A stretch of DNA of 64,000 bases from an uncultured Eubacterium sp. (GTDB lineage: Bacteria > Bacillota > Clostridia > Oscillospirales > Acutalibacteraceae), in NCBI GenBank assembly GCA_905233545.1, contig CAJOEV010000001.1, positions 1 through 64,000 on the forward strand, in the 5' to 3' direction. The notes below the pieces were generated by a model, which made no database searches, was not told the DNA's origin, and saw only the letters and a program-made list of their open reading frames with translations. Below, piece after piece: positions 7,601-22,334 of the stretch (position 1 is the stretch's first letter; the number at the start of each line of letters is the position of its first letter). A program made the translations under genes and the position numbers.

Positions 7601-10373
7601 AAAAGAAAAGAATACATCTAACTCTATGCACGCGCATTCCTATAATGCTCAGAGCACTAACAGCAACAATTTCCCGTCAAGCCTCTATTCCGTAGAGTTT
7701 GTAGAAAACTGGGAGGGCTCCGGACGCACGATGATGATAGTTACCATCACAGGTATTCCTGATAACTTGCCATCAAGTTATACTAATGCAATAAACGGCT
7801 TCAATGTTTTCTATAAGATGAAGACGGCTATGTCGAATGTCATTGCAAACGGTACGACCCAGACGAACTATGTCTCCTTCACCGATACAACGGAGAACCA
7901 GACCGTTCCCGTTTCAAGGTACGGCTCAATTTCCAGTTTGGATCAGAAGGCAATTTCCTATTATCAGAGAATAAACGACGCATATAAAGAGTTTACAGCA
8001 TATGCCAGCGATGCAACGCATTGCAAATTGCCTTCCCAGTATGTTACAGGTTTCAGCAACTCGGTTAAGACCGAAGGCGTCTTTATGATGGAAGACAAGA
8101 CAGTGGGTCTTGACTCTGATTATTCCTATAACGTAACATTCACAGACGGCGAAAGTGAAGCCGGTAATATCGTTATCTATGATGTTATAGAGCACAGTTA
8201 TAACGGTTCAAACTGCGAATGGCAGGGTACTTTCCAATCTGTTAATGTTTCCGCTATACAGAATATGGAGGCAACAAACTCGACTTCAAGCAATCCGATC
8301 TACTGTGAGCCGAAGGTCTATTACCTTGTAAAGGACGGTGAGATCACTCCCGATGATTTGGATTTAATGGGTAACCCCGAAATCTGGAGTGCTACCGTGC
8401 CTTCCGACAAGTCCACAATCAAGGCGATTGCCATCGATTGCCGAACTGCTTCAAACGGCGGAGACTTCACCCTTCCGGCAAAAAGGGCACTTTCCTTCAA
8501 TGTTGCTATGCATTCGCCGGAAACAAGCGAAGAAAATGATATCATTACCTACAACGAGGCAGTTGTAAAGGGATTAGTAGGTGGCCAGCCGAACAGCAGT
8601 AGGGCTATCACCCGCCTGACGCTGCATTACGCCGATCCTTTAATCGGCAAGAAATCGTTCCCCGAGTCGGGAAAAGATGCTGATCACCGCGCTGGCGCAG
8701 TTAACGGCAGTACGATAGATTACAGTCTTGTTATCACCAACCCCGATAAGTATGTTCCAATCCGCAACATCGTAATCGAGGATCTGCTGGATTCAAAACT
8801 TAAGGTCAACAGTATCCCCAAGGTTAGCATGGGTGACGAAACTCCGGTATCTATCAACAGTGCCGCAGGTATCACCTATAGCATTGAGCCTCAGGAAAGC
8901 ACAGGTGATAAGTTTACCGCTACGATAAGCAAACTTGATCCTGGTGAAACGATGACTATAATCGTTCCTGCTACCGTGACTGATGCGCCTAACGGCTATA
9001 CTATTGACAACACGGCTTATATTACCTCTGCAAACAGCAGAAGTCTGAATGTAAAGAGTGATACCACCTATCACTTTGTTACAAATACGCAGGCAAAAAT
9101 CAAGAAAGTCAACGTGAACGGTGACGGACTTGCCGGAGCTTCACTACAGATACTCAGCAGTGACAAGTCTCAGGTGCTGATAGATAATATCACATCCACT
9201 ACCGATGTTGTGTCGGTTGACCTTGTTCCGGGAGACTATGTACTGCACGAAGTCAGCACCCCCAACGATGAATACTACAAACTCGCAGCGGATATTCCGT
9301 TTTCCATAGATGTTGAGGGTATCAACAAGGTGGGTAACAAGTCTGTAAGTTATATCGAGATGGTTGACGAGCCTGCTTATAAGATTGTATTCCACGTGAA
9401 CCAGCCGGGTCAGGACGACGAGATATTTAAGACCTATGGACCTGCCGATCTGGAATCAGGCAAGATTAAACACTTCTATGATATTCCGAGTTTTGCCGGT
9501 GATGAGTATATATTCGCGGGCTGGTACCATGCGGACGGCTACACAGATTCTTCAGAATCAGCAACAATAGCCGCAAACTTTGAGAGCGACACATATACCA
9601 AATCTGATGATCAGAACCCCGCAGATTATCATCTCTATGCTAAGTGGATTGAGGTTGGCAAGGTAACATCACAGGATGAAGAGGATACCCACGACTACGG
9701 CGACGCCGGTATTCGCGGCTTCGGTCTTATCGGAGTTGAAATCCGCGATCCCGGAATGAATGACCCCAACTACAACAGCAATGCAAACGACACAACACCC
9801 GGAGGTATGAGATTTATCACCTCGCTGAGTGAAGAATTGCTTTCTGCTGTTGACGGACTTTCCAATCAAAAAGCTGAATACGGTTATGTTGTTGCTACTG
9901 AGGAGAATATTAAAAAATTCACCAGTAACTATAAGGTATCTGACTCCACAAAATATAAACTTCAATTTAACGGCAGAAATGTAAACGGCGTTGATACCAC
10001 AGGTCTTAACGATAAGGGCGATAGATTTGAAACGGATGAATTTGACAACAAGGTTTTGGCACGAAAAGATCTCACCGCTGAAAACGATTTTATCTATGTA
10101 ACTAATGTTAACTGTACAAAAGGCACGGGCAGCATTAAGAATGACCATCGTAATTTCAGAGACTATCGACTTTATACGCTTATTGTAACCTACGAGGGCG
10201 ATGACGCCGATAAAAAGAACCAAAAGATTGATGCCAGAGCATACCTCCGCTATACCGACGCCAACGGCAAGGAACGCATATTCTACAATAATTATAAGAA
10301 GAATTTGTACTACGGCGGATGTCTGAGCAGTTTCAATCAGGCAAAATCACTGGCAATCCAGTCCGACTTCTAA
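1617..10373 (+). CDS. giant secreted surface protein with BspA-type LRRs and Listeria-Bacteroides repeats
   Basis: A 2918-aa protein with an N-terminal signal peptide (basic start, hydrophobic core to about residue 37). Residues about 90-620 carry BspA/DUF285-type leucine-rich repeats (LDLSSWDTTKC, LDISNLSF). About 714-1306 hold seven Listeria-Bacteroides repeats (GYEFLGWYA, YAQW). Then follow large unrecognised regions, a DUF11-like segment (about 2340-2485), a SpaA/Cna-B-like prealbumin fold (about 2490-2585), another Listeria-Bacteroides repeat, and a C-terminal domain of about 230 residues. I see no LPXTG motif, SLH domain, dockerin or C-terminal membrane helix, so how it is held at the surface is unclear. 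The role is probably adhesion or binding, inferred from domains. The start follows AAGGGG. The downstream secreted protein may be cotranscribed (50-bp gap). Confidence 0.85.
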   Translation: MIKLRLNKKISKRFMSVLLVVSILASFIVPFNIISSFAESNGEEAATGSHIYAFLNYIDMSKTSNKQNYNLELVFKNENVKDSNYFAGPYTDFADIEYVTTTYTFDSTGRPSKTWNYNQWTPTQTPAANRLPWRNDSNNGDYIRKVTFKDKIAPKSIAGWFSSLRYLVKFENFENLDVSQCENMAYAFWGMNTGTRGDDIMDGTDNLKNQYLKSLDLSSWDTTKCRNFDCFINSGYLETLDISNLSFAGLNDNVVNVGGYGTVQYDANGKRTSGYPSTTCAVKSVSCLVYNCARLQTIKLDGFDFADVEFMSSFMGSTGVSKIDLSKVKNDPIHITSSENMFANNNKLTEIIFGEEGNPFEIGTEPMYLGYPRNGGIDPFRPNDKNGNGNYYENGYKSNAVWLGGFLKECSMLSTVDLKYLCINGFGKKADGTSYPANSADYGKSGFDRNNANLGSGFRYQFNNFFASCSSLERIDNLKNLGFMSSYSGAWGTRMMFQDCKSLTEIDLSTYWANLGGPMQFTNCHSLKKLDLSNMGRAMVVTNYWYTSAYEIMSKGFQSYYDTDKTKPNIFEGCTELSEVTLSPYYYGAVPHANRNTSDTARPELTADQVLQYVPNNTYTSVAKDIPPVDPDALWVKIKDPEEGAFQLSDLKGNYYMNTDRDRNTALESNELYPVNGTPLTTLELFGDYKPHYAGTWVRASKVALISKGATPAMQTFDGAVGLEVNYNPDDIKDPVRPGYEFLGWYATDENGVEKNLAEQLAANKDDDPDNNEVITAWAYYAKWKEHKYNLVLNGNLGTTTIHNETTDKDETVDSFTAKENLPYSEYFELNNTMFTRSGYVLSGWNTRPNGSGDEYAANESVARLSTVDGATVTLYAQWHQPDLILHFDANYPGAPSMPDKNYTLATGEKTYYGDLAEASRNGYTFGGWFTAPEGGTKIEANMEINTQYDTLYAHWHENPIVTFNANGGYFETTTDSSTTVIRQYKYNQNYGVLPTPVNDNAVLRGWYTKDGTDGDWGNEITSAEDNGGTAIESASDKIATQTKTYYARWGYQPIFETNGGVYKTFGNYPIQDGDQYVVASDNYAEEHPESTIPTLPTFRDEDGFIGWYFKGTNITEYLKTHDTYTIDMSQGNVVEAYWDVKSVYEVTLHLDGGSLPTTYLGTKNGVDYYRIKVYAGNKIEELPVPTKAVGSTAYEFLGWYTKDGAGGDWGDKKDYTFVPADNCDLYARWAARDITVNFDAGEGTLYLPSDETIMVYNGGSVKYLPGANRSGGYVFGGWYSDLNDESTKLTMSTSIASDTTYHAKWISAESIYTEADDQLYKYTVKWDTSSNEYATNMGDNLIIAPTNGNAALSATVYVRFAFDKVEASKDNKELPVGSVKIKVPKYVFATKDGTKVGTNNIANGLSKTDTADCHFIYDDSDPDYYIITNNEVIDKDAAYNDQVFQIDYRLDPTNLRKMNGGYTDENGYYGGNYYTNTFPVTIQVDRNTNGDLTDSLDADYQKELSLEVHTKVSASTSKTRSTVYFEWQESWGSAPQDANQYFYVVWDLIASFDNRNSQQFKFSWSEDTVHDGSVVKMTYGSGYSSTNYMGPGTYHTTVVTKHPRKTTDSGWKTVYNEAVLNIETLSGYEQQIRVSREDGVYLIPSGPGRLFEKKIYGYDEGADRIKSGGTESILSRSGVDNLKYEIEYIEYSNSDSEKVWHPTSKTYSVAERDIEISDGAKGHGDVVMSSVSGNDRYNWNCSSNVALSDADYSFTNLDIYLTEYDAIQVNGEWSEPYEHSAIRDYGDVEIWIRGENENDFRLFRTLTAADFNAPDEENNEKADYGAALASNVTLPERTAGYKIVHKSSFYSTKMTVCPTLFLRSTNKVYSFVQDNMLKNVNTLIKNNAVLSVDGDTLDSKRLDQGGAQICSYELKTDESYLYVTKKCAEDKTDSSGNDYYYVDSQAGTQEFPVLISAWGINRAGSTKLMQSGVFYDLLPYNFTVDKSTIFVQGRKEKNTSNSMHAHSYNAQSTNSNNFPSSLYSVEFVENWEGSGRTMMIVTITGIPDNLPSSYTNAINGFNVFYKMKTAMSNVIANGTTQTNYVSFTDTTENQTVPVSRYGSISSLDQKAISYYQRINDAYKEFTAYASDATHCKLPSQYVTGFSNSVKTEGVFMMEDKTVGLDSDYSYNVTFTDGESEAGNIVIYDVIEHSYNGSNCEWQGTFQSVNVSAIQNMEATNSTSSNPIYCEPKVYYLVKDGEITPDDLDLMGNPEIWSATVPSDKSTIKAIAIDCRTASNGGDFTLPAKRALSFNVAMHSPETSEENDIITYNEAVVKGLVGGQPNSSRAITRLTLHYADPLIGKKSFPESGKDADHRAGAVNGSTIDYSLVITNPDKYVPIRNIVIEDLLDSKLKVNSIPKVSMGDETPVSINSAAGITYSIEPQESTGDKFTATISKLDPGETMTIIVPATVTDAPNGYTIDNTAYITSANSRSLNVKSDTTYHFVTNTQAKIKKVNVNGDGLAGASLQILSSDKSQVLIDNITSTTDVVSVDLVPGDYVLHEVSTPNDEYYKLAADIPFSIDVEGINKVGNKSVSYIEMVDEPAYKIVFHVNQPGQDDEIFKTYGPADLESGKIKHFYDIPSFAGDEYIFAGWYHADGYTDSSESATIAANFESDTYTKSDDQNPADYHLYAKWIEVGKVTSQDEEDTHDYGDAGIRGFGLIGVEIRDPGMNDPNYNSNANDTTPGGMRFITSLSEELLSAVDGLSNQKAEYGYVVATEENIKKFTSNYKVSDSTKYKLQFNGRNVNGVDTTGLNDKGDRFETDEFDNKVLARKDLTAENDFIYVTNVNCTKGTGSIKNDHRNFRDYRLYTLIVTYEGDDADKKNQKIDARAYLRYTDANGKERIFYNNYKKNLYYGGCLSSFNQAKSLAIQSDF

Positions 10374-13296: not shown

Positions 13297-13922
13297 ATAA
13301 AAAGTATAGTATTTAAATCTATTTCTGTCAACACCATTTTATCCTATCACTTGAAAATATTTGTAGCGTTACAATAGATGTGACAACGAAAAGTAAAAAA
13401 GAGTATAGAAAAAAGCGAATAGAATTAAAATATAATTATAAAATAATTTTGTAACGACTTATTTATTTTATTAATATATAATAATGAAAAGGCATAGTAA
13501 CCGGTGTTCTTGAATCCGGCGCAAGTCGGCTATCCGAGAATCAGCAGGTCTGCGCTTCTGAGTGTTTGCAAGGGCTTTGGGACTTCGTGATTGATTTTTT
13601 GAGCATAAATTGCCTTTGCAGAATTATTGGCGAATTTTGAAAAACCGCACGGTTAAGCCATTTTTGCGTTTTGCGTTTGCGAAAAACGCAAGAATTTTCG
13701 CCTGTAGTTTGAAAACTTCTTTTGAATAATTTTTCGAAATCAAAAAAGAAAAAGACAGATTTTTGAGCAGTTTTTGACCTGCTGATTTTTTCGAATTTAT
13801 GCCAATATTTTAATGACTTTTATCAAACATAAAACAATAATTAAAGCCGCCGAAGGTGAAACTTCGACGGCTTGTTTTGTTCTGTAAAAGTGCGAAAAAC
13901 CGCTATTTCTAGCGGTTTTTCG
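13297..13922. other. 626-bp gene-free end of island A
   Basis: No supportable gene. It contains a possible folded stretch near 13500-13540 (CCGG ... CCGGCGCAAGTCGGC) of no recognised RNA class. It also has an inverted and a direct copy of the tRNA-Thr core 12-mer (13539-13550 and 13776-13787) and a hairpin GCCGCCGAAG/CTTCGACGGC (13845-13874). The tRNA-Tyr terminator closes the region. Confidence 0.5.
13892..13922 (-). terminator. terminator after tRNA-Tyr copy 2
   Basis: The stem CGAAAAACCGCT/AGCGGTTTTTCG directly adjoins the CCA end of the tRNA-Tyr on the minus strand. Confidence 0.75.
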
Positions 13923-14007
13923 TGGTGGGCAGAGGTGGATTCGAACCACCGAAGTCGTTGACGTCAGATTTACAGTCTGATCCCTTTGGCCGCTCGGGAA
14001 TCTGCCC
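13923..14007 (-). tRNA. tRNA-Tyr(GTA), copy 2
   Basis: An 85-nt class II tRNA with anticodon GTA, long variable arm, GGGCAGA/TCTGCCC acceptor stem and encoded CCA. It lies 27 bp from the truncated tRNA-Thr at 14035. The gap contains a small hairpin (GAGCGAC/GTCGCTC) absent from copy 3. Confidence 0.92.
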
Positions 14008-14034
14008 AAGTATTGGAGCGACTATCGTCGCTCG

Positions 14035-14081
14035 TGGAGCTGGTGAACGGACTCGAACCCCTGACCTGCTGATTACAAATC
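14035..14081 (-). pseudogene. tRNA-Thr(TGT) 3'-part, att-like copy 2
   Basis: Forty-seven bases are identical to 22259-22305 of the intact tRNA-Thr. Identity breaks just past the anticodon, leaving no D arm or 5' acceptor strand. It marks the junction between the two tandem islands. Confidence 0.85.
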
Positions 14082-14407
14082 TGGGAAGTGTAAATTAGCA
14101 GATTTTCAAACGCCCTATTCAAGCCGTTTTTCGGCGTTTTACAAGAAATTATCAAGCCTTAAAAGTAAAATCAGCAGGTCAAGCCGTTATTTAGCAACGC
14201 TTTGCAACAGATTTTATGTTATTTTATAGTCGCTTTTAATTCATAAGTGGTCAATAAGTGGTCAGATAAGTGGTCAAAAATCTTAATTTGTTTTTCAAAA
14301 GAAACACCAAATTCTTATCTGAATAATACAGTACAAATAACGACACTCATATAGAGTTATTATTGTAAAAAGGCTTTGAATATGTTAATATATCATAAGG
14401 TGATTAA
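14082..14407. other. left end of island B, gene-free
   Basis: Holds an inverted core 12-mer (14169-14180), three arm-type repeats and, near 14366-14394, a promoter-like TTGTAA-17-TAATAT for the tcmP gene. No other gene is seen. Confidence 0.5.
14243..14276 (+). repeat. three tandem arm-type repeats (left)
   Basis: ATAAGTGGTCA at 14243, 14254 and 14266, with start-to-start steps of 11 and 12 bp. The triplet at the other end (21943) has steps of 12 and 11. Confidence 0.65.
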
Positions 14408-15511
14408 ATGAAGAACAAATATAACTTTGACACGGCTAAGCCACATTCAATCAAAAAGTTTGAAATGATTAGTAGTTATACTGATGCTTGGGCCAGAAAG
14501 ATACTTGGATTCCAAAAATCCGAGGGCTTAGTATATATTGATTGCATGTCAAACTGTGGATACTATTTAGATGACGATTCTAACATGGTGGAAGGTACAG
14601 CAATTAAAGTAGTTAAAGCATTAGAAAAGCTTTCTGAGAATTATCCGCAAAAAACCATAGACATCTATTTTAACGACTATGAACAGTGGAAAGTTGATTA
14701 CTTGAAAGCGGCAATCAACTCATTAGGTGTAAAAAAGGTAGAGATTCATTATTCAAACTTGGACAGTAGTGAATTCTTGAATTCGTTGAGTCTTAAGACT
14801 TTTAGCAATAAGAGCACCTTGCTAATTTATGATCCATTTAAAGCAGCCATTGACTGGGATGCTTTGCAACCATATTTAAATGGGTGGTGTGAGGTGATTA
14901 TTAACCATATGATTCACGATACTACCAGAGGAGCCAAGCAAGCTAAAAAGCAGGAAGTTATTGATCGATATGAACAAACATATAAGTGCAGTATAAATGA
15001 AATATTAAACATTTGTACTGATCGGGATAAGCTTGACAGTATTGTTATTGATATCATTGAAAAATCGGTTTCTAACAATCCGAGAGAACACTATATAGCT
15101 TCATTTCCCTTTTACAACAGAACTAAAGGACTGGTTTATAATCTCTTAATGTGCACTAGTAACATTGAGGGAATGAAACTTTATAAAAAAGTTGCTTGGA
15201 AGAACTTTGGGAATAGATCTTCAACAAAAAAAGATTTTGTTAATACTCAATTGCAGTTTTCTTTTGATGATGGGTCTATCGAAATGGAAACGGATGAACA
15301 TTGTTATAATATCACCGATATCGCTATGTATGTTTATAATAAATATCATACATCTGGAAAGGTGTTGTTAGATATTGTTTATTATGATCTTGACAGGCAT
15401 CCGATTTTCCCTACAGATGGATATAAAAATGACATCAAAAATGAATTGAAAAGCCTCTACGGAGTTTCTTTTCAGCACATTAACGGGAAACAATATGTTT
15501 TATTTAAGTGA
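14408..15511 (+). CDS. tcmP: three-Cys-motif partner protein TcmP
   Basis: 367 aa. It opens with HSIKKFEMISSYTDAWARKI, then has a methyltransferase-like Rossmann start (GLVYIDCMSNCGYY, residues about 38-51), a second-strand acidic position (IYFNDYEQ) and a later LLIYDPF strand. This order fits TcmP (TIGR04474), a family named for its frequent neighbour with three conserved cysteines, which is indeed the next gene (10-bp gap). The usual FAGPG glycine-rich loop is replaced by CMSNCG, so it is a divergent member. Enzymatic activity is unproven; SAM binding is inference. The start follows AAGGTG. First gene of the island operon. Confidence 0.75.
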   Translation: MKNKYNFDTAKPHSIKKFEMISSYTDAWARKILGFQKSEGLVYIDCMSNCGYYLDDDSNMVEGTAIKVVKALEKLSENYPQKTIDIYFNDYEQWKVDYLKAAINSLGVKKVEIHYSNLDSSEFLNSLSLKTFSNKSTLLIYDPFKAAIDWDALQPYLNGWCEVIINHMIHDTTRGAKQAKKQEVIDRYEQTYKCSINEILNICTDRDKLDSIVIDIIEKSVSNNPREHYIASFPFYNRTKGLVYNLLMCTSNIEGMKLYKKVAWKNFGNRSSTKKDFVNTQLQFSFDDGSIEMETDEHCYNITDIAMYVYNKYHTSGKVLLDIVYYDLDRHPIFPTDGYKNDIKNELKSLYGVSFQHINGKQYVLFK

Positions 15512-15520
15512 GGAAATATA

Positions 15521-16228
15521 ATGTCAACAAGCAAGATTGAATGGACAGAGGTTACGTGGAATCCTATAACCGGATGTACCAAAATATCAGATGGTTGCGC
15601 AAACTGTTATGCGGCAAATTTTGCAAGGCGTTTACAGGCAATGGGGAATGCTCGTTATCAAAATGGATTTAAACCGACAGTTCATCAAGATCTGATAGAT
15701 CTTCCAAAAAGTTGGAAAACTCCTAAAAAAGTATTTGTTAATTCTATGTCCGATTTGTTTCACGAAGATATTCCGACTGAAACGATATTAAAGATATTCA
15801 AAACAATGAATGAGTGTCCACAACATCAGTTTCAGGTTTTAACAAAAAGATCAGAGAGACTGAAAGAAATAGCACCGCAGATTAATTGGACAGATAATAT
15901 TTGGATGGGTGTGACTGTCGAGAATAATAAGTACTATTCAAGAATTGCTGATTTAAAAGAAACAGGTGCACACATAAAGTTTATTTCTGCTGAACCTTTA
16001 TTGAGTAGTTTGTCAGAAATAGATCTTGATGGTATTAACTGGCTAATTGTAGGCGGAGAATCCGGACCTCATTCTCGAGCTATGGATAAAGCTTGGGTTG
16101 ATGAATTACAACAAATAGCAAAAAAAGCGGAAGTTGCTTTTTTCTTTAAGCAATGGGGCGGATTTAATAAAAAGAAAAACGGAAAACTGTTAAACGGAAA
16201 AGTAATTCAAGAATATCCAAAGGAATAG
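15521..16228 (+). CDS. DUF5131 (phage Gp37/Gp68-type) three-Cys protein
   Basis: 235 aa. The N-terminus carries WNPITGCTKISDGCANCYA, the three-cysteine signature (Cys-x6-Cys-x2-Cys, residues about 19-29), followed by KVFVNSMSDLFHEDIP, FQVLTKRSERL, WMGVTVEN, ISAEPLL and WLIVGGESG. These are the marker motifs of DUF5131, which is related to radical-SAM proteins and widespread in phages and islands. The C-terminus has FFFKQWGG. It is tightly coupled to tcmP and to the nuclease-like gene behind it (8-bp gap), so the three probably work together. The substrate is unknown. Confidence 0.85.
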   Translation: MSTSKIEWTEVTWNPITGCTKISDGCANCYAANFARRLQAMGNARYQNGFKPTVHQDLIDLPKSWKTPKKVFVNSMSDLFHEDIPTETILKIFKTMNECPQHQFQVLTKRSERLKEIAPQINWTDNIWMGVTVENNKYYSRIADLKETGAHIKFISAEPLLSSLSEIDLDGINWLIVGGESGPHSRAMDKAWVDELQQIAKKAEVAFFFKQWGGFNKKKNGKLLNGKVIQEYPKE

Positions 16229-16236
16229 GAGAGAAT

Positions 16237-17379
16237 ATGACACACGTATTTATTGTTAATGAACAAACATTTAAAGTGCATCTTGAATACATGTTTGCTG
16301 GTACTGGTTATGGCGAAAACGAACCAGATTTTATAGGGTGTACAAAAGAATTAGATAAATCAGATAGAACAGAAAACACTTTTGTTGAAATGATAGCAGA
16401 TATTTCAAAAGTGCATCCTAATGATCGAGTTGCGTTCTATGTAACTGGATGCAAAAAGATTTTTGGCTTTTTTAAAGCCATTGAAACTCCGTTTTTCACT
16501 TCAAAAGATACAGATGATTTAATGCCTCTATTGGATAAGTATTTACCCTTGAGAATAAAGATTGTACCTGACGAAGTTTTTTCCGAGGGGATATCAGAAA
16601 TAGAAGCGTTGGATGATATTTCTGAAATTCAACACCCATATCAAATGTGCTGGAGCTTAATATATAGAAAGCTTACCGGTATGAGAGGCTGTTCTTTTGT
16701 AACGGATTATGAATATTCGCGATTGAGAAACCAAATAATCGAAAACAACGATGGTTCATTAAACTGCGATCGTTTTTCTTATGATATAGCTCAACAAAGA
16801 ATTGTACCAAGAGAAACAACAAACAACTATGTATTTGACACAACAACAGATTTAAAAATCAAAGATCGTTTGCTTGCTGTGAAAAAAGGTTCATTTGAAC
16901 GACATTTACAGGCTTACATAATCCAGAATTATGATAGTAGTGTAGAATTAAAAAATCTGTTACTGCCCCAAGAATTATTAAACTGTTGGATAGGCAACGA
17001 AGTTGTTTGTAGTGCAGGTGAACAAAGAATTGACATATTAACTGTTTCGGAAACAGAAGAAAAATTTCAAATTAGGATTATTGAATTGAAATATGGATAT
17101 CCACGAGAAGATATTATAAAAAAGCAACTAGTTTGGTACATTAAATGGGTTCAACAATATATTGTGCCCAATCTTACTGAAAAGCAAGTGGAAATAATAC
17201 CTACAGTTATTGCTGATGCATACAAAAGAAATTGCCCGGGACAAACAAATTTCAAAAATGCTTGTGACACTTTCAATGTCGACAAACCGTTAGTTAATGG
17301 CTGCGTTAGTTTAAATCCAGTAGAGTATATTAAATTTATAAAAACTGAAAATGACATTTCATTTACAAGAGTTTTTTAA
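16237..17379 (+). CDS. EVE-like domain fused to NucS/DUF91-type nuclease
   Basis: 380 aa. The N-terminal half has a PUA/EVE-like pattern: DRVAFYVTGCKKIFGFFKA near residues 67-85, then LRIKIVPDEVFSEG. The C-terminal part (about 222-340) resembles the NucS/DUF91 nuclease fold: SFERHLQAYI, IGNEVVCSAGEQRIDILT and IIELKYGY give a PD-(D/E)xK-like set (Asp of RIDIL, Glu-Leu-Lys). EVE domains bind modified bases in known cases, so a modification-sensing nuclease is plausible, but both domain calls rest on motif reading. It follows the DUF5131 gene by 8 bp with GGAGAG as ribosome site. Confidence 0.6.
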   Translation: MTHVFIVNEQTFKVHLEYMFAGTGYGENEPDFIGCTKELDKSDRTENTFVEMIADISKVHPNDRVAFYVTGCKKIFGFFKAIETPFFTSKDTDDLMPLLDKYLPLRIKIVPDEVFSEGISEIEALDDISEIQHPYQMCWSLIYRKLTGMRGCSFVTDYEYSRLRNQIIENNDGSLNCDRFSYDIAQQRIVPRETTNNYVFDTTTDLKIKDRLLAVKKGSFERHLQAYIIQNYDSSVELKNLLLPQELLNCWIGNEVVCSAGEQRIDILTVSETEEKFQIRIIELKYGYPREDIIKKQLVWYIKWVQQYIVPNLTEKQVEIIPTVIADAYKRNCPGQTNFKNACDTFNVDKPLVNGCVSLNPVEYIKFIKTENDISFTRVF

Positions 17380-17434
17380 TGCTGGATATCTGATACAAAG
17401 TATGGTATAGTAGATATAGAAAAGAGGTGATGGC

Positions 17435-18436
17435 GTGAACTATATTGGATCAAAACAATCATTAATGGGATTCTTGACAGATACCATTACCGATGTTGTA
17501 GGAACTGAAACCCAAGGCAAAGTGTTCGCTGACTTGTTTGCCGGAACGGGTGCAGTTGGCACCGAATTCAAAAGAAAAGGCTATAGAGTTATAGCTAACG
17601 ACATACAAGAATATAGTTTCGTATTAAACCGTCATCTCATTCAGAATGTTCCTCCGGTAAAAATAGAGATATTAGATTATCTTAATGAGCTTAAAGGAAC
17701 AGAAGGTTTTATATACAAAAACTACTGTGCAGGTTCAGGAAGCGGAAGACAGTACTTTACTGATGAGAACGGCAAAAAGTGCGACGCAATTAGGATTGAG
17801 TTGAATGAATTAAAGCGTTCAGGAGAAATAGATGAATCGCAATATTACTTCCTGTTAGCAAGTTTGATTAACTCAATAGACAAGTATGCAAATACCGCAT
17901 CTGTATATGGTGCGTTCCTCAAGAAAGTGAAGAAGTCCGCAGCGAAAGAGTTTGAACTCGAATTGCTTCCGATAATTGATGGTGATAAAGAGAGCAAAGC
18001 ATACAAAGATAACATCACTAATTTGATAAAGGGCATCGGTGGAGACATACTCTATATGGATCCCCCATACAACGCAAGACAGTATTGTACAAACTATCAT
18101 GTGCTTGAAACGATTGCTTTATATGACAATCCCGTACTAAGAGGAAAAACAGGACTCAGAGATTATACAGAACAAAAAAGTGCATTCTGTTCTAAGAGAA
18201 CGGTAGTTGATGCGTTTGATGAAGTTTTGAGAAATGCGGAATTCAATTACATATTCCTTAGTTACAATAATGAAGGATTGATGGATTTCAATACTATTCG
18301 TAAGACTATGGAAAAGTATGGTGAGTATCAGCAGTTCAGCACAGACTACAAAAGATTCAAGGCTGATATTGATGAAAACAGAAACTATTCAGCTGACAAA
18401 ACAACAGAATATTTACACTGCTTAATCAAAAAGTAA
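17435..18436 (+). CDS. D12-class N6-adenine methyltransferase, NlaIII-type modification enzyme
   Basis: 333 aa from a GTG start after AAGAGGTG. NYIGSKQSL at the N-terminus, FADLFAGTGAVG (SAM-binding motif I, residues about 30-41) and ILYMDPPYNARQY (catalytic DPPY) define an adenine-N6 methyltransferase of the Dam/D12 class. Length and the start resemble the CATG methylases M.NlaIII/M.HpyI. The restriction gene behind it (67 bp) resembles NlaIII, which supports a CATG specificity, still inferred. TATAGT at 17405-17410 may be its own -10 box, so the pair may be expressed apart from the upstream trio. Confidence 0.8.
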   Translation: MNYIGSKQSLMGFLTDTITDVVGTETQGKVFADLFAGTGAVGTEFKRKGYRVIANDIQEYSFVLNRHLIQNVPPVKIEILDYLNELKGTEGFIYKNYCAGSGSGRQYFTDENGKKCDAIRIELNELKRSGEIDESQYYFLLASLINSIDKYANTASVYGAFLKKVKKSAAKEFELELLPIIDGDKESKAYKDNITNLIKGIGGDILYMDPPYNARQYCTNYHVLETIALYDNPVLRGKTGLRDYTEQKSAFCSKRTVVDAFDEVLRNAEFNYIFLSYNNEGLMDFNTIRKTMEKYGEYQQFSTDYKRFKADIDENRNYSADKTTEYLHCLIKK

Positions 18437-18466
18437 CTTCTCTGTTGAGAAGTTACTTTTTTTCTG
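18433..18466 (+). terminator. terminator between methylase and restriction gene
   Basis: The stem AAGTAACTTCTC/GAGAAGTTACTT is followed by seven T and begins at the methylase stop codon. A TATAAT-like box (18468-18473) just after it suggests the endonuclease gene has its own promoter. Separate expression lets the methylase act first. Confidence 0.75.
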
Positions 18467-18503
18467 TTATAATTATCTCATCAAGTATTAAAGGTGGGAT
18501 AAT

Positions 18504-19130
18504 ATGAAACCTTTTAAAGAAGGAACGAAACCATATTTATTTGAACAATTGGCACAACCTGATGAAAACGGCATCAGCCGTTGGGTTTCAAAATCAGAGT
18601 TTGTTGGAGAATACGCAGAACTGATGTTTCAAAACGGCGCTTCCTGGTGCCGCAAAGAATCGTCTATTGCAAAGAAATATATTGTAAAATTTGACAAATC
18701 CATTACTCCCGGAAACGGTGTTGACCGAATTAAACTGGATGGATTTCGAGGCGAAGAAGAATGGATAGGTAGCCAGGCAATTCGTACTGACATTAAAAAT
18801 CATTATAGACAAAAGAGATGTGTGGTTCTTGGAACTTCCAATCCGGAAGTTGATCATAAAAACGGTTGGAAAAACGATGCCGAGGTTATGAATACTTCTT
18901 CACAGAAAATGGAAGATTTTCAGCCGTTAAGCAAAGCAGCAAATGATGCTAAAAGACAGTTCTGCAAGGAGTGCCGCAGAACGGGAATTCGCTATGATGC
19001 AAAGAAATTGGGATATCCTATTTCCTACTATTATGGCGATTCACAGCATAGAGGTGATGAAACCGGATGTGTTGGTTGCTTTTGGTATGACCCTATTGAA
19101 TTTAGAAAGCATTTAAAGAAAAAAGATTAA
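18504..19130 (+). CDS. NlaIII/IceA-like HNH restriction endonuclease
   Basis: 208 aa. The N-terminal half contains SRWVSKSEFVGEY, NGASWCRKESS and IRTDIKNHYR. The catalytic part has VDHKNGWKND, then FQPLSKAANDAKRQFCKECR, a beta-beta-alpha-metal (HNH) arrangement with paired cysteines, and ends GCVGCFWYDPIEFRK. This order agrees with my memory of NlaIII and H. pylori IceA1, CATG-cutting enzymes about this long. With the adjacent D12 methylase it forms a type II restriction-modification system. Cleavage specificity is inferred. Start after AAAGGTGG. Confidence 0.7.
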   Translation: MKPFKEGTKPYLFEQLAQPDENGISRWVSKSEFVGEYAELMFQNGASWCRKESSIAKKYIVKFDKSITPGNGVDRIKLDGFRGEEEWIGSQAIRTDIKNHYRQKRCVVLGTSNPEVDHKNGWKNDAEVMNTSSQKMEDFQPLSKAANDAKRQFCKECRRTGIRYDAKKLGYPISYYYGDSQHRGDETGCVGCFWYDPIEFRKHLKKKD

Positions 19131-19140
19131 GGATGTTAGT

Positions 19141-19932
19141 ATGGCTAAATATAATGATTTAGACATGAAAAACTGGAAAGAGTACGATGATATACTCACA
19201 GATTCATTATGGATATTTGATAAAAGAGATAAATCAGGTGTTCATAATGCAAGTTATCACGGAAATTTTGTTCCTCAAATACCAAATCAGTTATTCAGAC
19301 GCTATACCAAAAAAGGCGACTGGATTCTTGATCCCTTTTCTGGGGGCGGTACTGCTTTAATAGAAGCGCAACGTCTTGGACGAAACTCTATTGGAATAGA
19401 GCTTCAGGAAGAAATCGCTAAGCAGTCACAAGAACTGTTGCTTGAAGAAAAGAATCCTAAAACGAAGGGAAAAATAATTGTTGGAGATAGCAGAACGGTT
19501 GATTTAGAAGAAAAGCTTAAATCACTTGGTACAGATAAAGTACAGTTCATTATTTATCATCCGCCATATTGGGACATCATTAAGTTTAGTGAAAACGAAA
19601 ATGACTTGTCTAACTGCGAAACTCTGAGCGAGTTTCTTGAATCGTTCGGACAAGTCATAGACAATACATCACAGTATCTTGAGAAGAACAGATATTGCGC
19701 CGTTGTTATTGGCGACAAATACGCAAACAGTGAAATTATTCCCCTTGGATTCTATTGCCTGAATCTTTTCCAAATGCGTGGTTTTAAATTAAAAGCGATT
19801 CTTGTCAAGAACTTTGAAGAAACCAAGGGCAAAGCAAATCAAAAAGCTATCTGGCGTTATAGAGCGTTAGCGAGCGATTTCTATCTGTTCAAACACGAGT
19901 ATATTTTTGTGTTTAAGAAGATAAAAAGATAA
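19141..19932 (+). CDS. beta-class DNA methyltransferase (N4-C/N6-A)
   Basis: 263 aa. DPFSGGGTALIEAQRLG followed by NSIGIEL (residues about 62-86) is a SAM-binding motif, and IIYHPPYWDIIKFS (about 138-151) is the catalytic PPY motif, with His in the first position where SPPY or DPPY is commoner. There is no target-recognition insert of the large kind, so it is a short, possibly orphan enzyme. It starts 10 bp after the endonuclease stop and may be cotranscribed with it. It could protect against a third nuclease or serve the zinc-ribbon gene downstream. Confidence 0.8.
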   Translation: MAKYNDLDMKNWKEYDDILTDSLWIFDKRDKSGVHNASYHGNFVPQIPNQLFRRYTKKGDWILDPFSGGGTALIEAQRLGRNSIGIELQEEIAKQSQELLLEEKNPKTKGKIIVGDSRTVDLEEKLKSLGTDKVQFIIYHPPYWDIIKFSENENDLSNCETLSEFLESFGQVIDNTSQYLEKNRYCAVVIGDKYANSEIIPLGFYCLNLFQMRGFKLKAILVKNFEETKGKANQKAIWRYRALASDFYLFKHEYIFVFKKIKR

Positions 19933-20048
19933 TAAATATATTATACCAATTCAAATTCCTAATTAGTAAGAATGTAGAAAAATTTGATTTGAAGTTATGC
20001 AAGGTTTATAAAAATGTTGGTAAGAAGTTTTTAGAAAGGTTTATTATT

Positions 20049-21086
20049 ATGATAGTAAATAAAAACAAATGCCCTGTTTGCGGTAATTCTGCAGAAACAA
20101 TGGATTATGGAAACAATCATATATATGTAAACTGCAATACTTGTGGTTATTTGTATGTTCGTAATGATGATTTATATGATGAAGAACCCAAAGACAAGAA
20201 CAAACTAGCGTCATATCTTTATTATAATGGCAAACTTAAAACATATTCTAAAGAAGACGAACATTTCTTTAATATGATTACAGATGATAATGTGTACAAA
20301 GTTCATAAAAAAGCATTATATCATTGCGGAAATGTAAATAATCGTATGGTAGAATCATGGTTTCCTGATACCTTTAGCGAAAAAGTTGATATGTTTTTGT
20401 TAGGCCTTTCAAAAAGACAAAAACATATGGGTGATGTTATAGAATTATCCTTTGAAGAGGCTTTATCTGCCTGCTTTGTAAATCGGTTCAACGACAAGGA
20501 TGAACAGCTAAACCAGAAAGAATTATTAGAACAAGCAAACTATTTATTAGATTATTTAAAAAATAACAGATTAGTTGACAGCATTAATACAAGATTTCAA
20601 ATTCTTCCAGAGGGGCAGAAAAGAATTGATGAATTACAAAAACATAATATAAATAATAAAAATGTTTTTGTTTCTATGGCATTTAATGACAATACAAAAG
20701 AAACGCGAGAAGCTATTCGCAAAGGCATTATTGAAGCCGAGTTTTCTCCTGAATTTCTTGATGAAATAATACACAACAAACAAATTGTTCCGGAAATGTT
20801 TAGGCTGATCCGTGAATGTCGTTTTTTGATACTTGATATTTCGGATCCCAATTATGGTGCATATTACGAAGCAGGTTATGCATTAGGATTGGGGAAGGAA
20901 GTTATTATAACATGCAAAGCTGATGTGTTTAATGGAGATTATGGAAATTATTCTAAAGAGGAATTAAACAAATTTGAAAAGTATTTAAAACCGCATTTTG
21001 ATATTGCTCAAAAACAAATTCTTGTATGGGACAATTATGAAGATTTAACAAATAAATTGGCTGAATGGATAAAAGCTTTATTCTAA
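20049..21086 (+). CDS. zinc-ribbon protein with deoxyribosyltransferase/TIR-like C-terminal domain
   Basis: 345 aa from the ATG at 20049, which follows AGAAAGG; a longer in-frame start at 19989 lacks a ribosome site. The N-terminus has two CxxC pairs (CPVCGNS, CNTCGYLYV), a zinc ribbon. The middle is unrecognised. From about residue 205, NKNVFVSMAFND, a long helix, RFLILDISDPNYGAYYEAGYALGLGKEVI and a hydrophobic WD end fit the nucleoside 2-deoxyribosyltransferase-like fold, used in several immune proteins as a nucleotide or NAD-hydrolysing effector. The AYYEAGYALG glutamate would be catalytic. It closes a run of defence genes. Role inferred. Confidence 0.6.
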   Translation: MIVNKNKCPVCGNSAETMDYGNNHIYVNCNTCGYLYVRNDDLYDEEPKDKNKLASYLYYNGKLKTYSKEDEHFFNMITDDNVYKVHKKALYHCGNVNNRMVESWFPDTFSEKVDMFLLGLSKRQKHMGDVIELSFEEALSACFVNRFNDKDEQLNQKELLEQANYLLDYLKNNRLVDSINTRFQILPEGQKRIDELQKHNINNKNVFVSMAFNDNTKETREAIRKGIIEAEFSPEFLDEIIHNKQIVPEMFRLIRECRFLILDISDPNYGAYYEAGYALGLGKEVIITCKADVFNGDYGNYSKEELNKFEKYLKPHFDIAQKQILVWDNYEDLTNKLAEWIKALF

Positions 21087-21187
21087 GGGGAAAAGTTTTT
21101 TGAGTCTAAATAGGCTGATATAGAAAGATAACTAATAACTAATTGTTAATAATTAAATATTATACATTTGTTATTATAGCATACTTT

Positions 21188-21220
21188 AGCGCTACACGAA
21201 AGTGCAGCGCTTTATTTTTG
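21188..21220 (+). terminator. terminator before the HTH gene
   Basis: AGCGCTACAC-GAAA-GTGCAGCGCT followed by TTATTTTT. It lies inside a longer possible N-terminal extension of the next gene, which supports the later start at 21275. Confidence 0.65.
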
Positions 21221-21274
21221 TCTGGACTTTTGGATTGGTTTGTGATAGTTGTTGTGTTGCAAAGGAGTGATACA

Positions 21275-21745
21275 ATGACAACACTTGAAAATCTATACAA
21301 TGGAAACATACGCCCGTGCGAACTTGAAAAGCTTGCTGAACGGGAGGATTACAAGGCGGCATTGAAACAAGTATGCGACATTAGAGATGAATTTGAAGCA
21401 AGTCTTTCGGAGCTACAAAAATATCTATTTGATAAGTATGTAAAAGAAAGTGATGTGCTTTCGCTGATAGTAGAGGAAGAAATATTCAAAGAAGGGTTCT
21501 CTCTTGCGATGAGAATAAAAGATGAAGTGAAAGATGCCAAGGAAGTTGCGCTGTATAAAGACTTTGAAGATATGCCGCCGGAACTCACTATTCCTGAAGT
21601 AGCGAAACTATTAAGAGTATCCCCCAATCATTTATACTATATGGTAGAAAAAGATAAAACCTTCCCTGTACTACAACTAGGAAGGAAGAAACTGATACCA
21701 AAAGATGAACTCAAAGAATGGATAAAAAAGAATTGCCGAAAATAA
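21275..21745 (+). CDS. DUF6809-like N-terminus fused to excisionase-type HTH
   Basis: 156 aa from an ATG behind AAAGGAGTG. Residues 1-95 (TLENLYNGNIRPCE, ALKQVCDIRDEFEASL, FKEGFSLAMRI) follow the pattern of small DUF6809 proteins of Firmicutes. Residues about 103-153 (LTIPEVAKLLRVSPNHLYYM ... LKEWIKK) form an HTH_17/excisionase DNA-binding domain. The fusion is unusual to me. As the only DNA-binding recombination-type protein on island B, next to the right arm repeats, it is a candidate recombination directionality factor or island regulator. It could instead be a simple repressor. Confidence 0.65.
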   Translation: MTTLENLYNGNIRPCELEKLAEREDYKAALKQVCDIRDEFEASLSELQKYLFDKYVKESDVLSLIVEEEIFKEGFSLAMRIKDEVKDAKEVALYKDFEDMPPELTIPEVAKLLRVSPNHLYYMVEKDKTFPVLQLGRKKLIPKDELKEWIKKNCRK

Positions 21746-22139
21746 TATAATGCTCAAAATGTAAAATTCAACCGTTTTTGACTGGCTGAAAACCCATCAG
21801 CAGTTTATTTGACTGGCTGGCGCCGAATCAGCAGGTCAGAAAGTTTGAAAACTCTTTATTCAGGGCAAAATAACAGACAAATCATTTCAAAAAATCTATC
21901 AAAAACCTAAAAAAGAGTTAGCATTTTGAAAATATTTATTTCATAAGTGGTCAGATAAGTGGTCAATAAGTGGTCATGTGCCAAAAATGCCCCTTTTTTG
22001 ACCTGCTGATTATTTATCTATTTCAGCAGATTTAAAGGGGCGTTTTTTGGACTGATATTAGTTTTTGTGTATTTTAGAAGTGAATATCAATTTTTGCAAT
22101 CACGCTCAACAAACACAACATGTTGTGGCATAAAAACAA
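21746..22139. other. gene-free right end of island B
   Basis: Holds an inverted core 12-mer (21826-21837), the arm triplet (21943-21976), a direct core 12-mer (22000-22011) and several partial CAGCAG copies. No gene is seen. Confidence 0.55.
21943..21976 (+). repeat. three tandem arm-type repeats (right)
   Basis: ATAAGTGGTCA at 21943, 21955 and 21966, the same unit and orientation as at 14243-14276 and 1151-1172. Confidence 0.65.
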
Positions 22140-22166
22140 AGAAACCACTATAAATAGTGGTTTCAG
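22140..22166 (-). terminator. terminator after tRNA-Tyr copy 3
   Basis: The stem GAAACCACTAT/ATAGTGGTTTC lies directly after the tRNA-Tyr CCA on the minus strand. Confidence 0.75.
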
Positions 22167-22251
22167 TGGTGGGCAGAGATGGATTCGAACCATCGAAGTC
22201 GTTGACGTCAGATTTACAGTCTGATCCCTTTGGCCGCTCGGGAATCTGCCC
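22167..22251 (-). tRNA. tRNA-Tyr(GTA), copy 3
   Basis: An 85-nt class II tRNA, anticodon GTA, acceptor GGGCAGA/TCTGCCC, encoded CCA. It differs from copy 2 by a compensated T-stem pair (GATGG ... CCATC for GGTGG ... CCACC). It lies 7 bp downstream of tRNA-Thr, and the two are probably one transcript. Confidence 0.93.
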
Positions 22252-22258
22252 ATATTAT

Positions 22259-22334
22259 TGGAGCTGGTGAACGGACTCGAACCCCTGACCTGCTGATTAC
22301 AAATCAGCTGCTCTACCAACTGAGCTACACCAGC
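22259..22334 (-). tRNA. tRNA-Thr(TGT), the only complete copy
   Basis: A 76-nt cloverleaf with acceptor GCTGGTG/CACCAGC, D-loop AGTTGGTA, anticodon TGT, T-loop TTCGAGT and encoded CCA. Its 3' 47 bases are repeated at 14035 and, with one change, at 981, so it is the present insertion target. Integration keeps the gene whole because the element carries the 3' part. Confidence 0.95.

What the first reader, a model, noticed from the sequence alone, without database searches (positions are those of the whole stretch)
14408..17379. TcmP, DUF5131 and an EVE/NucS-like nuclease as a possible uncharacterised defence system
Three genes spaced 8-10 bp apart: a methyltransferase-like TcmP with a divergent SAM loop, its known neighbour with three cysteines (radical-SAM-like), and a protein that reads as a modified-base-binding domain plus a PD-(D/E)xK nuclease. 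The set suggests writing a modification and reading or cutting by it. The TcmP/DUF5131 pairing is established from family naming; the third partner and the idea of a modify-and-sense system are inference.
Basis: partly seen in the sequence, partly recalled or inferred. Interest (0 to 1): 0.78.

Follow-up and report, generated by a model that had tools for sequence, protein, structure and literature searches.

The report
EVE-domain nuclease of a restriction operon
The third gene does encode a modified-base-reader-type domain joined to a DNA-cutting-type domain, but it belongs with the restriction-modification genes downstream rather than with the two genes upstream, and it looks like an undescribed kind of restriction enzyme.

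Summary
The three ORFs are real and correctly placed. The domain reading holds: the third protein (16237-17379, "EVEn") models at pLDDT 90.5 with an EVE fold, and carries PD-(D/E)xK motifs with a weak NucS match. TcmP and DUF5131 are as described.
The trio is not a recurrent unit. Among 46 other loci with an EVEn ORF, TcmP or DUF5131 lies near in 0, while an N6_N4-type DNA methyltransferase (relative of window 19141-19932) lies within four genes in 43. In 19 other DUF5131 loci, EVEn was found in 0. Nucleotide homology to locus L037 spans 16227-16309 and 17374-19933: the shared module starts 10 bp before EVEn.
Best reading: EVEn is the endonuclease of a type II-like restriction-modification module. 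It stands with one methyltransferase in 18 loci, and with a D12 methyltransferase and an ICEA nuclease as well in 17 and in the window. A distant version sits where R.DpnII sits in related loci. TcmP+DUF5131 is a separate pair, already in PADLOC as PDC-M30/M41. Cutting and specificity are untested.

The parts
16237..17379 (+). Third gene ('EVEn'): EVE domain (residues about 1-170) + NucS-like PD-(D/E)xK nuclease (about 206-330); proposed restriction endonuclease
   Evidence: AF2 pLDDT 90.5 and Foldseek; profile hits to PH1033, MJECL36 and weakly NucS; invariant E221, Q225, D266, E283-L-K285, Q297 in 39 sequences
17435..18436 (+). D12-class adenine DNA methyltransferase
   Evidence: PF02086 167 bits; PADLOC MTase_II 356 bits; near EVEn in 23 of 46 other loci
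18504..19130 (+). ICEA (IceA-type) restriction nuclease
   Evidence: PF05315 234.5 bits; near EVEn in 20 of 46 other loci
19141..19932 (+). N6_N4-type DNA methyltransferase with HPPY motif ('N4MT'), the main conserved partner of EVEn; methylated base unknown
   Evidence: PF01555 82.6 bits; PADLOC MTase_II 388.6 bits; within 4 genes of EVEn in 43 of 46 other loci; motifs
16227..19933 (+). Extent of the restriction module as shared with locus L037 (interior of the EVEn gene diverged)
   Evidence: blastn blocks 16227-16309 (82%) and 17374-19933 (79%)
14408..15511 (+). TcmP, methyltransferase-fold protein with degenerate SAM loop; separate pair with DUF5131
   Evidence: TIGR04474 above cut-off; fold; alignment A3
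15521..16228 (+). DUF5131 (phage Gp37/Gp68), radical-SAM-like three-Cys protein
   Evidence: PF07505 314 bits; radical SAM mobile pair protein A 94 bits, below that family's cut-off of 355; invariant Cys
19989..21086 (+). Zn-ribbon + nucleoside deoxyribosyltransferase/TIR-like protein; island cargo, no link to EVEn shown
   Evidence: weak Pfam/PADLOC hits only; profile hit only in the window
21143..21745 (+). DUF6809 + excisionase-type helix-turn-helix protein at the island's end
   Evidence: PF20648 55.7 bits, PF12728 46 bits, TIGR01764 37.4 bits
14035..14081 (.). 47-bp copy of the tRNA-Thr 3' part: left end of the island
   Evidence: identical to 22259-22305
22259..22305 (.). Same 47 bp inside the intact tRNA-Thr gene: right end of the island

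Best explanation
The third gene is the restriction endonuclease of a type II-like restriction-modification module (16227-19933), not a partner of TcmP/DUF5131. The N6_N4-type methyltransferase, joined in this lineage by a D12 adenine methyltransferase, marks the host's sites. The EVE-nuclease, and beside it the ICEA nuclease, cut DNA that lacks the mark. Inferred step: the EVE domain is the target-reading part; it flips a base at the target, the NucS-like domain cuts, and methylation by the neighbouring enzymes blocks this. For the four-gene form CATG is the first sequence to try, since I recall IceA1/NlaIII and their D12-class methyltransferases as CATG enzymes; no call tested it. TcmP+DUF5131 is an independent candidate pair carried on the same tRNA-Thr island. 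Shown: EVE fold, conserved nuclease motifs, gene linkage, module boundary, exchange of nucleases around a more stable methyltransferase core. Inferred: that it cuts, what it reads, and that methylation protects.
For: N4MT lies within four genes in 43 of 46 other EVEn loci; of the three exceptions L007 lies on a 3.8-kb contig, L012 is cut at the contig end and L049 keeps a 59-aa EVEn piece beside a D12 gene. 18 of 46 loci hold N4MT + EVEn without D12 or ICEA. Only 7 of these 18 have 3 kb or more on both sides; 91 neighbours from the 18 loci matched none of seven seeds (other D12, other N4MT, distant EVE-nuclease, DpnII, ICEA, other nuclease). The 48 neighbours in the 7 loci are largely housekeeping genes such as FtsK, gyrase and glycine cleavage enzyme, with one type IIG restriction enzyme; both lists show 25 families only. 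In 24 same-strand N4MT-EVEn neighbours 12 overlap by 4 bp and 4 by 1 bp, starts chosen mechanically. Five loci have D12+N4MT+EVEn without ICEA; one has D12+ICEA+N4MT without EVEn (L096). A distant EVE-like/NucS-like protein (hhalign probability 86.5, E 4.6e-6, 299 columns) lies in the order D12 - nuclease - N4MT in L163 and L167 (identical proteins, one genus) and behind D12 at a contig end in L162. In 12 loci with N4MT's nearest other clade, D12, R.DpnII and N4MT come in that order in 11, directly adjacent in 8 (DpnII checked by Pfam in 2). Module boundary at 16227.
Against: No biochemical data. EVE-PD(D/E)xK fusions are described as putative modification-dependent (type IV) enzymes (PMC7641849 section 9), and the EVE domain of VcaM4I reads 5mC/5hmC (PMC7897488 passages). 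EVEn divergence follows N4MT only loosely (distance r 0.43 over 37 loci) against 0.84 for N4MT with D12 over 21 loci, and EVEn is 42% identical to L037 over 209 residues where the other three proteins are 89-92%: it behaves like an exchangeable part. One set (L096) lacks it. 11 of the 18 two-gene loci are cut short on a side, so some may have held more genes. The 8-bp gap to DUF5131 leaves co-transcription with the upstream pair possible, and against L008 the homology block begins at 16212, inside the end of DUF5131. The loci are not independent: L008, L010 and L011 are near copies, L029, L040 and L046 share flanking genes.
Confidence: 0.72

Rival explanations
1. Type IV stacking: EVEn is a modification-dependent nuclease that destroys phage DNA with modified bases, kept next to an ordinary restriction system so that unmodified and modified phages are both covered; the methyltransferases protect only against ICEA or other nucleases.
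For: EVE-PD(D/E)xK fusions are predicted type IV (PMC7641849); VcaM4I is one by experiment (PMC7897488 passages); EVE/YTH structures lead the Foldseek list; EVEn diverges faster than the methyltransferases.
Against: 18 of 46 loci have N4MT + EVEn and no ICEA or D12; in the 7 with good context the only other restriction enzyme seen among 48 neighbours is one type IIG protein; 4-bp overlap of N4MT and EVEn in 12 of 24; a distant version sits in the R.DpnII slot.
Confidence: 0.18
2. One reading: TcmP and DUF5131 write a DNA modification that EVEn reads or cuts by.
For: 8-9 bp spacing and one strand in the window; EVE is a base-modification reader fold.
Against: EVEn near TcmP/DUF5131 in 0 of 46 other EVEn loci and in 0 of 19 other DUF5131 loci, 14 of which have a TcmP-like gene next to DUF5131; shared module starts between DUF5131 and EVEn in L037 and L004.
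Confidence: 0.05
3. EVEn is a safety or quality device of the restriction module: its EVE domain reads the module's own methyl mark and the nuclease acts only on wrongly or half methylated DNA.
For: YTH domains that bind N6-methyladenine are among the fold matches, and m6A is the product expected of a D12 enzyme; linkage to methyltransferases is near constant.
Against: In the two-gene loci with good context no dedicated second nuclease was recognised.
Confidence: 0.05

Closest known systems
DpnII-type restriction-modification (D12 methyltransferase, second methyltransferase, R.DpnII)
   Same: Methyltransferases of the same two classes with a nuclease gene among them; N4MT's nearest other clade in the sampled family genomes (31-39% identity) is the second methyltransferase in 11 of 12 loci; in L163/L167 the EVE-nuclease holds the R.DpnII place.
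   Different: The nuclease is an EVE + NucS-like protein with no DpnII family hit; 18 loci show a single methyltransferase gene.
EVE-PD(D/E)xK and EVE-HNH (VcaM4I) modification-dependent endonucleases; EVE proteins beside other restriction systems
   Same: EVE reader + nuclease in one chain; fold match to VcaM4I 6yex (E 0.014). Stand-alone EVE proteins are reported beside type I systems and beside a SWI2/SNF2-nuclease with a COG1743 methyltransferase, with the guess that the mark is one EVE does not bind (PMC7641849 passages).
   Different: The fusions are predicted or shown to need modified DNA. Here the fusion itself sits near a type II-like methyltransferase in 43 of 46 loci, a pairing I did not meet in the parts of the papers I saw.
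IceA1/NlaIII restriction-modification
   Same: ICEA family nuclease (PF05315) beside a D12 methyltransferase. IceA1 is related to the NlaIII nuclease; PMC3261200 prints its site as CTAG in the text and cites a paper titled CATG-recognizing (passages); CATG is also my recollection.
   Different: A second methyltransferase and the EVE-nuclease are added; two ICEA subfamilies occur with similar methyltransferases.
PADLOC PDC-M30 / PDC-M41 (TcmP + DUF5131)
   Same: The upstream pair matches these models.
   Different: The window's TcmP is a weak match (42.7 bits); no EVEn was found in 19 other DUF5131 loci.

Membership tests
EVE domain (PUA superfamily) | EVE fold | tested here: met
   Foldseek best hit PH1033 E 1.1e-4, then PSPTO5229 and THYN1 at 0.0018
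EVE domain (PUA superfamily) | Sequence profile | tested here: met
   Family profile finds PH1033 E 1.4e-4, MJECL36 0.0033. Pfam EVE itself is not hit by the window protein and only below cut-off by relative L030
EVE domain (PUA superfamily) | Pocket that binds a modified base | not testable with these tools
   VcaM4I pocket residues seen in passages of PMC7897488; no residue-level structural alignment was available
PD-(D/E)xK nuclease | D ... ExK and following Q | tested here: met
   D266, E283-L-K285, Q297 invariant in 39
NucS-like nuclease | Similarity to NucS/EndoMS | tested here: inconclusive
   NucS 2vld E 0.024, EndoMS 0.55; NucS_C hits below cut-off in relatives
Type II restriction-modification system | Nuclease gene beside its methyltransferase gene | tested here: met
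   43 of 46 loci within four genes
Type II restriction-modification system | Cuts a defined unmethylated sequence, blocked by the cognate methyltransferase | not testable with these tools
   needs enzyme assay
Type IV (modification-dependent) restriction | No cognate methyltransferase | tested here: not met
   that the linked methyltransferase is cognate is inference
Type IV (modification-dependent) restriction | Cleavage needs modified DNA | not testable with these tools
   needs enzyme assay
TcmP (TIGR04474) | Profile score over cut-off | tested here: met
   87.3 vs 53 bits
TcmP (TIGR04474) | Next to a three-Cys DUF5131 protein | tested here: met
   9 bp upstream of it; 14 of 19 other DUF5131 loci, with a profile built from 11 of them
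PDC-M30/PDC-M41 | A and B components present | tested here: met
   PDC-M30A 42.7 bits; PDC-M41B 380 and PDC-M30B 369 bits; PADLOC's own system rules not run
DpnII system | R.DpnII family nuclease | tested here: not met
   no PF04556 hit in the eight window proteins scanned
   0 of 46 and 0 of 19

The most novel reading that the evidence does not exclude
A restriction enzyme whose specificity is set by an EVE domain that tells the module's own methyl mark from both bare and otherwise modified DNA, so that one nuclease covers the ground of type II and type IV restriction; the EVE domain would then read self methylation and hold the nuclease back.
Probability: 0.15. Interest if true: 0.75.

Novelty: new variant of a known kind. 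Interest (0 to 1): 0.45.

Why it matters
EVE domains are studied as readers of modified bases in type IV enzymes. Here an EVE-nuclease is tied to a type II-like methyltransferase across bacteria and one contig labelled archaeal, in a distant version in the place of an ordinary restriction enzyme. That makes a direct test possible: does a modified-base reader fold serve to see unmodified DNA, or to see self? The window protein has no hit in Pfam, NCBIfam or PADLOC, and L021's none in PADLOC, so annotation may leave it unnamed and its methyltransferase an orphan. It also removes a wrong lead: TcmP/DUF5131 need not be tested with this gene.

Tried and rejected
Trio as a system: rejected by neighbourhood counts from both sides. 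EVEn on plasmids or phages: no tblastn match (E 0.01) in 72,556 plasmid or 50,697 phage records; two scans of viral contigs gave 5 and 53 pattern stretches but no relatives. The 754-aa gene upstream in L096 is a KAP NTPase; large neighbours in L015, L006, L009 and L029 are housekeeping-type genes. A further nuclease family in L004 and L007 hits a PADLOC type II nuclease model. Specificity through site avoidance in the host genome could not be done. TcmP and DUF5131 profiles against the PDB gave nothing useful. D12 and ICEA searches of the PDB and plasmids gave no named specificity in the rows shown. Four weak matches in other phylum genomes were not pursued: L159-L161 show no N4MT, D12 or ICEA profile hit; L168 was compared only with L163's proteins, no hit.

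Rows dropped before counting: L001-L003, which repeat the window, L012 and L014; L050, with no EVEn ORF left, is the one of 47 not in the 46. Within the 46, EVEn is split in L037, L040 and L046, cut at contig ends in L012, L045 and L047, and a 59-aa piece in L049. For the distance comparison L010, L011 and L014 were dropped too. The D12 profile missed the L163-type D12, hence the extra seeds. One DUF5131 locus (L144) has a weak N4MT-profile hit of 100 aa (E about 1e-6).

Literature: searches were seen as listings. One search found 393 papers, of which 30 were listed, these 30 for other meanings of TCMP. Of PMC7641849 section 9 and passages were read; of PMC7897488, PMC12707154, PMC3261200 and PMC10855318 passages only. 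No paper on an EVE nuclease with a type II-like methyltransferase showed in the listings; the library is open-access only.
Full report
What is there. The three ORFs stand as described, intact, with gaps of 9 and 8 bp. The same-strand run goes on: a D12 adenine methyltransferase (17435-18436), an ICEA nuclease (18504-19130), an N6_N4-type methyltransferase (19141-19932), a Zn-ribbon/deoxyribosyltransferase-like protein and a DUF6809/helix-turn-helix protein. All lie between two copies of a 47-bp piece of tRNA-Thr (14035-14081 and 22259-22305), with a tRNA-Tyr copy at each end, in DNA of mostly 30-38% GC against about 36-48% to the left and 41-47% to the right.

The third protein. No family library hits it. 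An alignment of 39 sequences (A2) gives a model with pLDDT 90.5 and pTM 0.90. Foldseek's best match, and the only one below E 0.001, is the EVE protein PH1033 (1.1e-4); PSPTO5229, THYN1, YTH domains and the EVE-HNH enzyme VcaM4I follow, and PaqCI and SfsA appear too (which part matches is not shown). The profile finds PH1033 (E 1.4e-4) and MJECL36 (0.0033) over the EVE part, and NucS (0.024) and EndoMS (0.55) over the other part, the last two weak. E221, Q225, D266, E283-L-K285 and Q297 are invariant.

Its neighbours elsewhere. One scan of the species-genome collection gave 47 loci. With iterated profiles, 46 of the 47 keep an EVEn ORF (some split or cut; see Tried and rejected). N4MT lies within four genes in 43 of 46, D12 in 23, ICEA in 20, TcmP or DUF5131 in 0. 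The sets are: N4MT+EVEn 18; all four 17; D12+N4MT+EVEn 5; ICEA+N4MT+EVEn 3; EVEn alone 2 (L007 on a 3.8-kb contig, L012 cut); D12+EVEn piece 1. Record titles name Clostridia, Bacteroidales, Ignavibacteria, Spirochaetaceae, Anaerolineaceae, a Rodentibacter, a Candidatus Altarchaeum and others. Some are near copies (L008, L010, L011) or share flanks (L029, L040, L046). In 24 same-strand N4MT-EVEn pairs, 12 overlap by 4 bp.

Control on the two-gene form. 7 of the 18 N4MT+EVEn loci have 3 kb or more on both sides; none of 91 neighbours from the 18 loci matches seeds for other D12 or N4MT enzymes, the distant EVE-nuclease, DpnII, ICEA or the L004 nuclease. Pfam on the 48 neighbours of the 7 good loci shows mainly housekeeping families (25 of 58 families listed); PADLOC shows one type IIG restriction enzyme and no stand-alone type II nuclease model among the 25 of 51 families listed.

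From the other side. 20 of 398 phylum genomes have a close DUF5131, the window's included. In the other 19, a TcmP-like gene is next to it in 14 (profile built from 11 of these), EVEn in 0. A Hymenobacter plasmid carries an annotated tcmP and Gp37/Gp68 gene with no EVEn named among its listed neighbours. Within the family sample EVEn is in 3 of 300 genomes, the window's included.

Module boundary. Against L037 the window is alike at nucleotide level over 16227-16309 and 17374-19933; against L004 and L005 a block begins at 16237, against L008 at 16212, just inside DUF5131's end. The shared unit starts at or very near EVEn's start, so TcmP and nearly all of DUF5131 are outside it. In L037 the D12, ICEA and N4MT proteins are 89-92% identical to the window's, but EVEn is 42% over 209 residues and split into two ORFs. 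EVEn is thus the fast or exchanged part. N4MT and D12 distances agree best (r 0.84, 21 loci); EVEn with N4MT r 0.43 (37 loci), with D12 0.66 (21 loci); in all six comparisons 0 of 500 relabellings reached the value.

Nucleases swap around steadier methyltransferases. L096 has D12-ICEA-N4MT with no EVEn. L009, L015, L022, L028 and L033 have no ICEA. ICEA comes in two forms: the window's and L004's share 39% over 77 residues, while D12 and N4MT of the same loci share 73% and 85%. L004 carries a further REase_II-model protein right after N4MT. This is what one expects if the methyltransferases guard a site that several nucleases can cut; it is inference.

The DpnII parallel. N4MT's nearest other clade in the family genomes (11 genomes, 31-39% identity) and one plasmid relative make 12 loci; D12, R.DpnII and N4MT come in that order in 11, directly adjacent in 8 and with an ORF between in 3 (L051, L102, L104); L098 has no R.DpnII found (Pfam DpnII tested and met in L100 and L105). 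A profile search of 398 phylum genomes gave 9 with a match, the window's included. G496 has a broken EVEn next to N4MT and D12 (L158). G303 and G350, one genus with identical proteins, have D12 - 385-aa EVE-like/NucS-like protein - N4MT, and G674 has D12 - 388-aa homologue at a contig end. The other four (G372, G464, G485, G513) match in the nuclease part. The 385-aa family matches A2 over 299 columns (probability 86.5, E 4.6e-6). So in those loci an EVE-type nuclease takes the place of the DpnII endonuclease. DpnA as a single-strand methylase of the DpnII system is known to me from memory and from a title in the reference list of PMC12707154.

Mechanism. Most likely EVEn cuts DNA lacking the marks of N4MT/D12, with the EVE domain as recognition part. 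Linkage and anatomy are shown; cutting, target and protection are not. That the EVE domain of VcaM4I flips and reads modified cytosine (PMC7897488) and that EVE-PD(D/E)xK proteins are predicted type IV enzymes (PMC7641849) speak for the main rival. The two-gene form speaks against it, with the limits given above. The same review guesses, for stand-alone EVE proteins beside other restriction systems, that the methyltransferase makes a mark which EVE does not bind; that fits either reading.

TcmP and DUF5131. TcmP is a Rossmann methyltransferase-like protein (model pLDDT 76.6; matches include RlmJ) with a degenerate SAM loop. DUF5131 has C-x6-C-x2-C invariant and resembles radical SAM mobile pair protein A below that family's cut-off. 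PADLOC models both as PDC-M30/M41. In a P. aeruginosa panel PDC-M30 was predicted in 32 strains, 68.8% of them phage-resistant (PMC10855318, passages). What they do remains open.

Noticed in passing
14035-14081, 22259-22305; 13917-14008, 22161-22252: An island of about 8.2 kb flanked by a 47-bp exact repeat of tRNA-Thr and by two tRNA-Tyr copies (96%), with no tyrosine recombinase inside; a search of the genome found three, on other contigs.
   Followed up: partly
14254-14280 and 21943-21969: 27-bp repeats (96% alike) built of ATAAGTGGTCA units near both island ends; they could be integrase or excisionase arm sites.
   Followed up: no
19989-21086: Zn-ribbon protein whose C-terminal half weakly resembles nucleoside deoxyribosyltransferase, DUF4062 and a TIR effector model; possible separate effector.
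   Followed up: no
L163:4428-7245, L167, L162: D12 - EVE-like/NucS-like nuclease (385-388 aa, no PADLOC hit) - N4MT: a second, distant family of the same layout.
   Followed up: partly
L004:4377-5123, L007:1359-2144 and 3264-3806: A protein family matching a PADLOC type II nuclease model (PDLC03458, tested for two of three copies) directly beside N4MT or EVEn; L007 has one copy on each side of EVEn.
   Followed up: partly
L096:5738-8002: A KAP NTPase gene stands upstream of D12-ICEA-N4MT, where EVEn stands in L004 and L008.
   Followed up: no
two-gene loci L019-L047: In 16 of the 18 two-gene loci N4MT is 358-396 aa long, with roughly 95-130 extra N-terminal residues absent in the four-gene form; no Pfam hit in L021's, and the PADLOC model PDLC03351 covers part of it.
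   Followed up: partly
1617-10373: A 2918-aa ORF that reads like a repeat-rich surface protein precedes the island (not searched).
   Followed up: no
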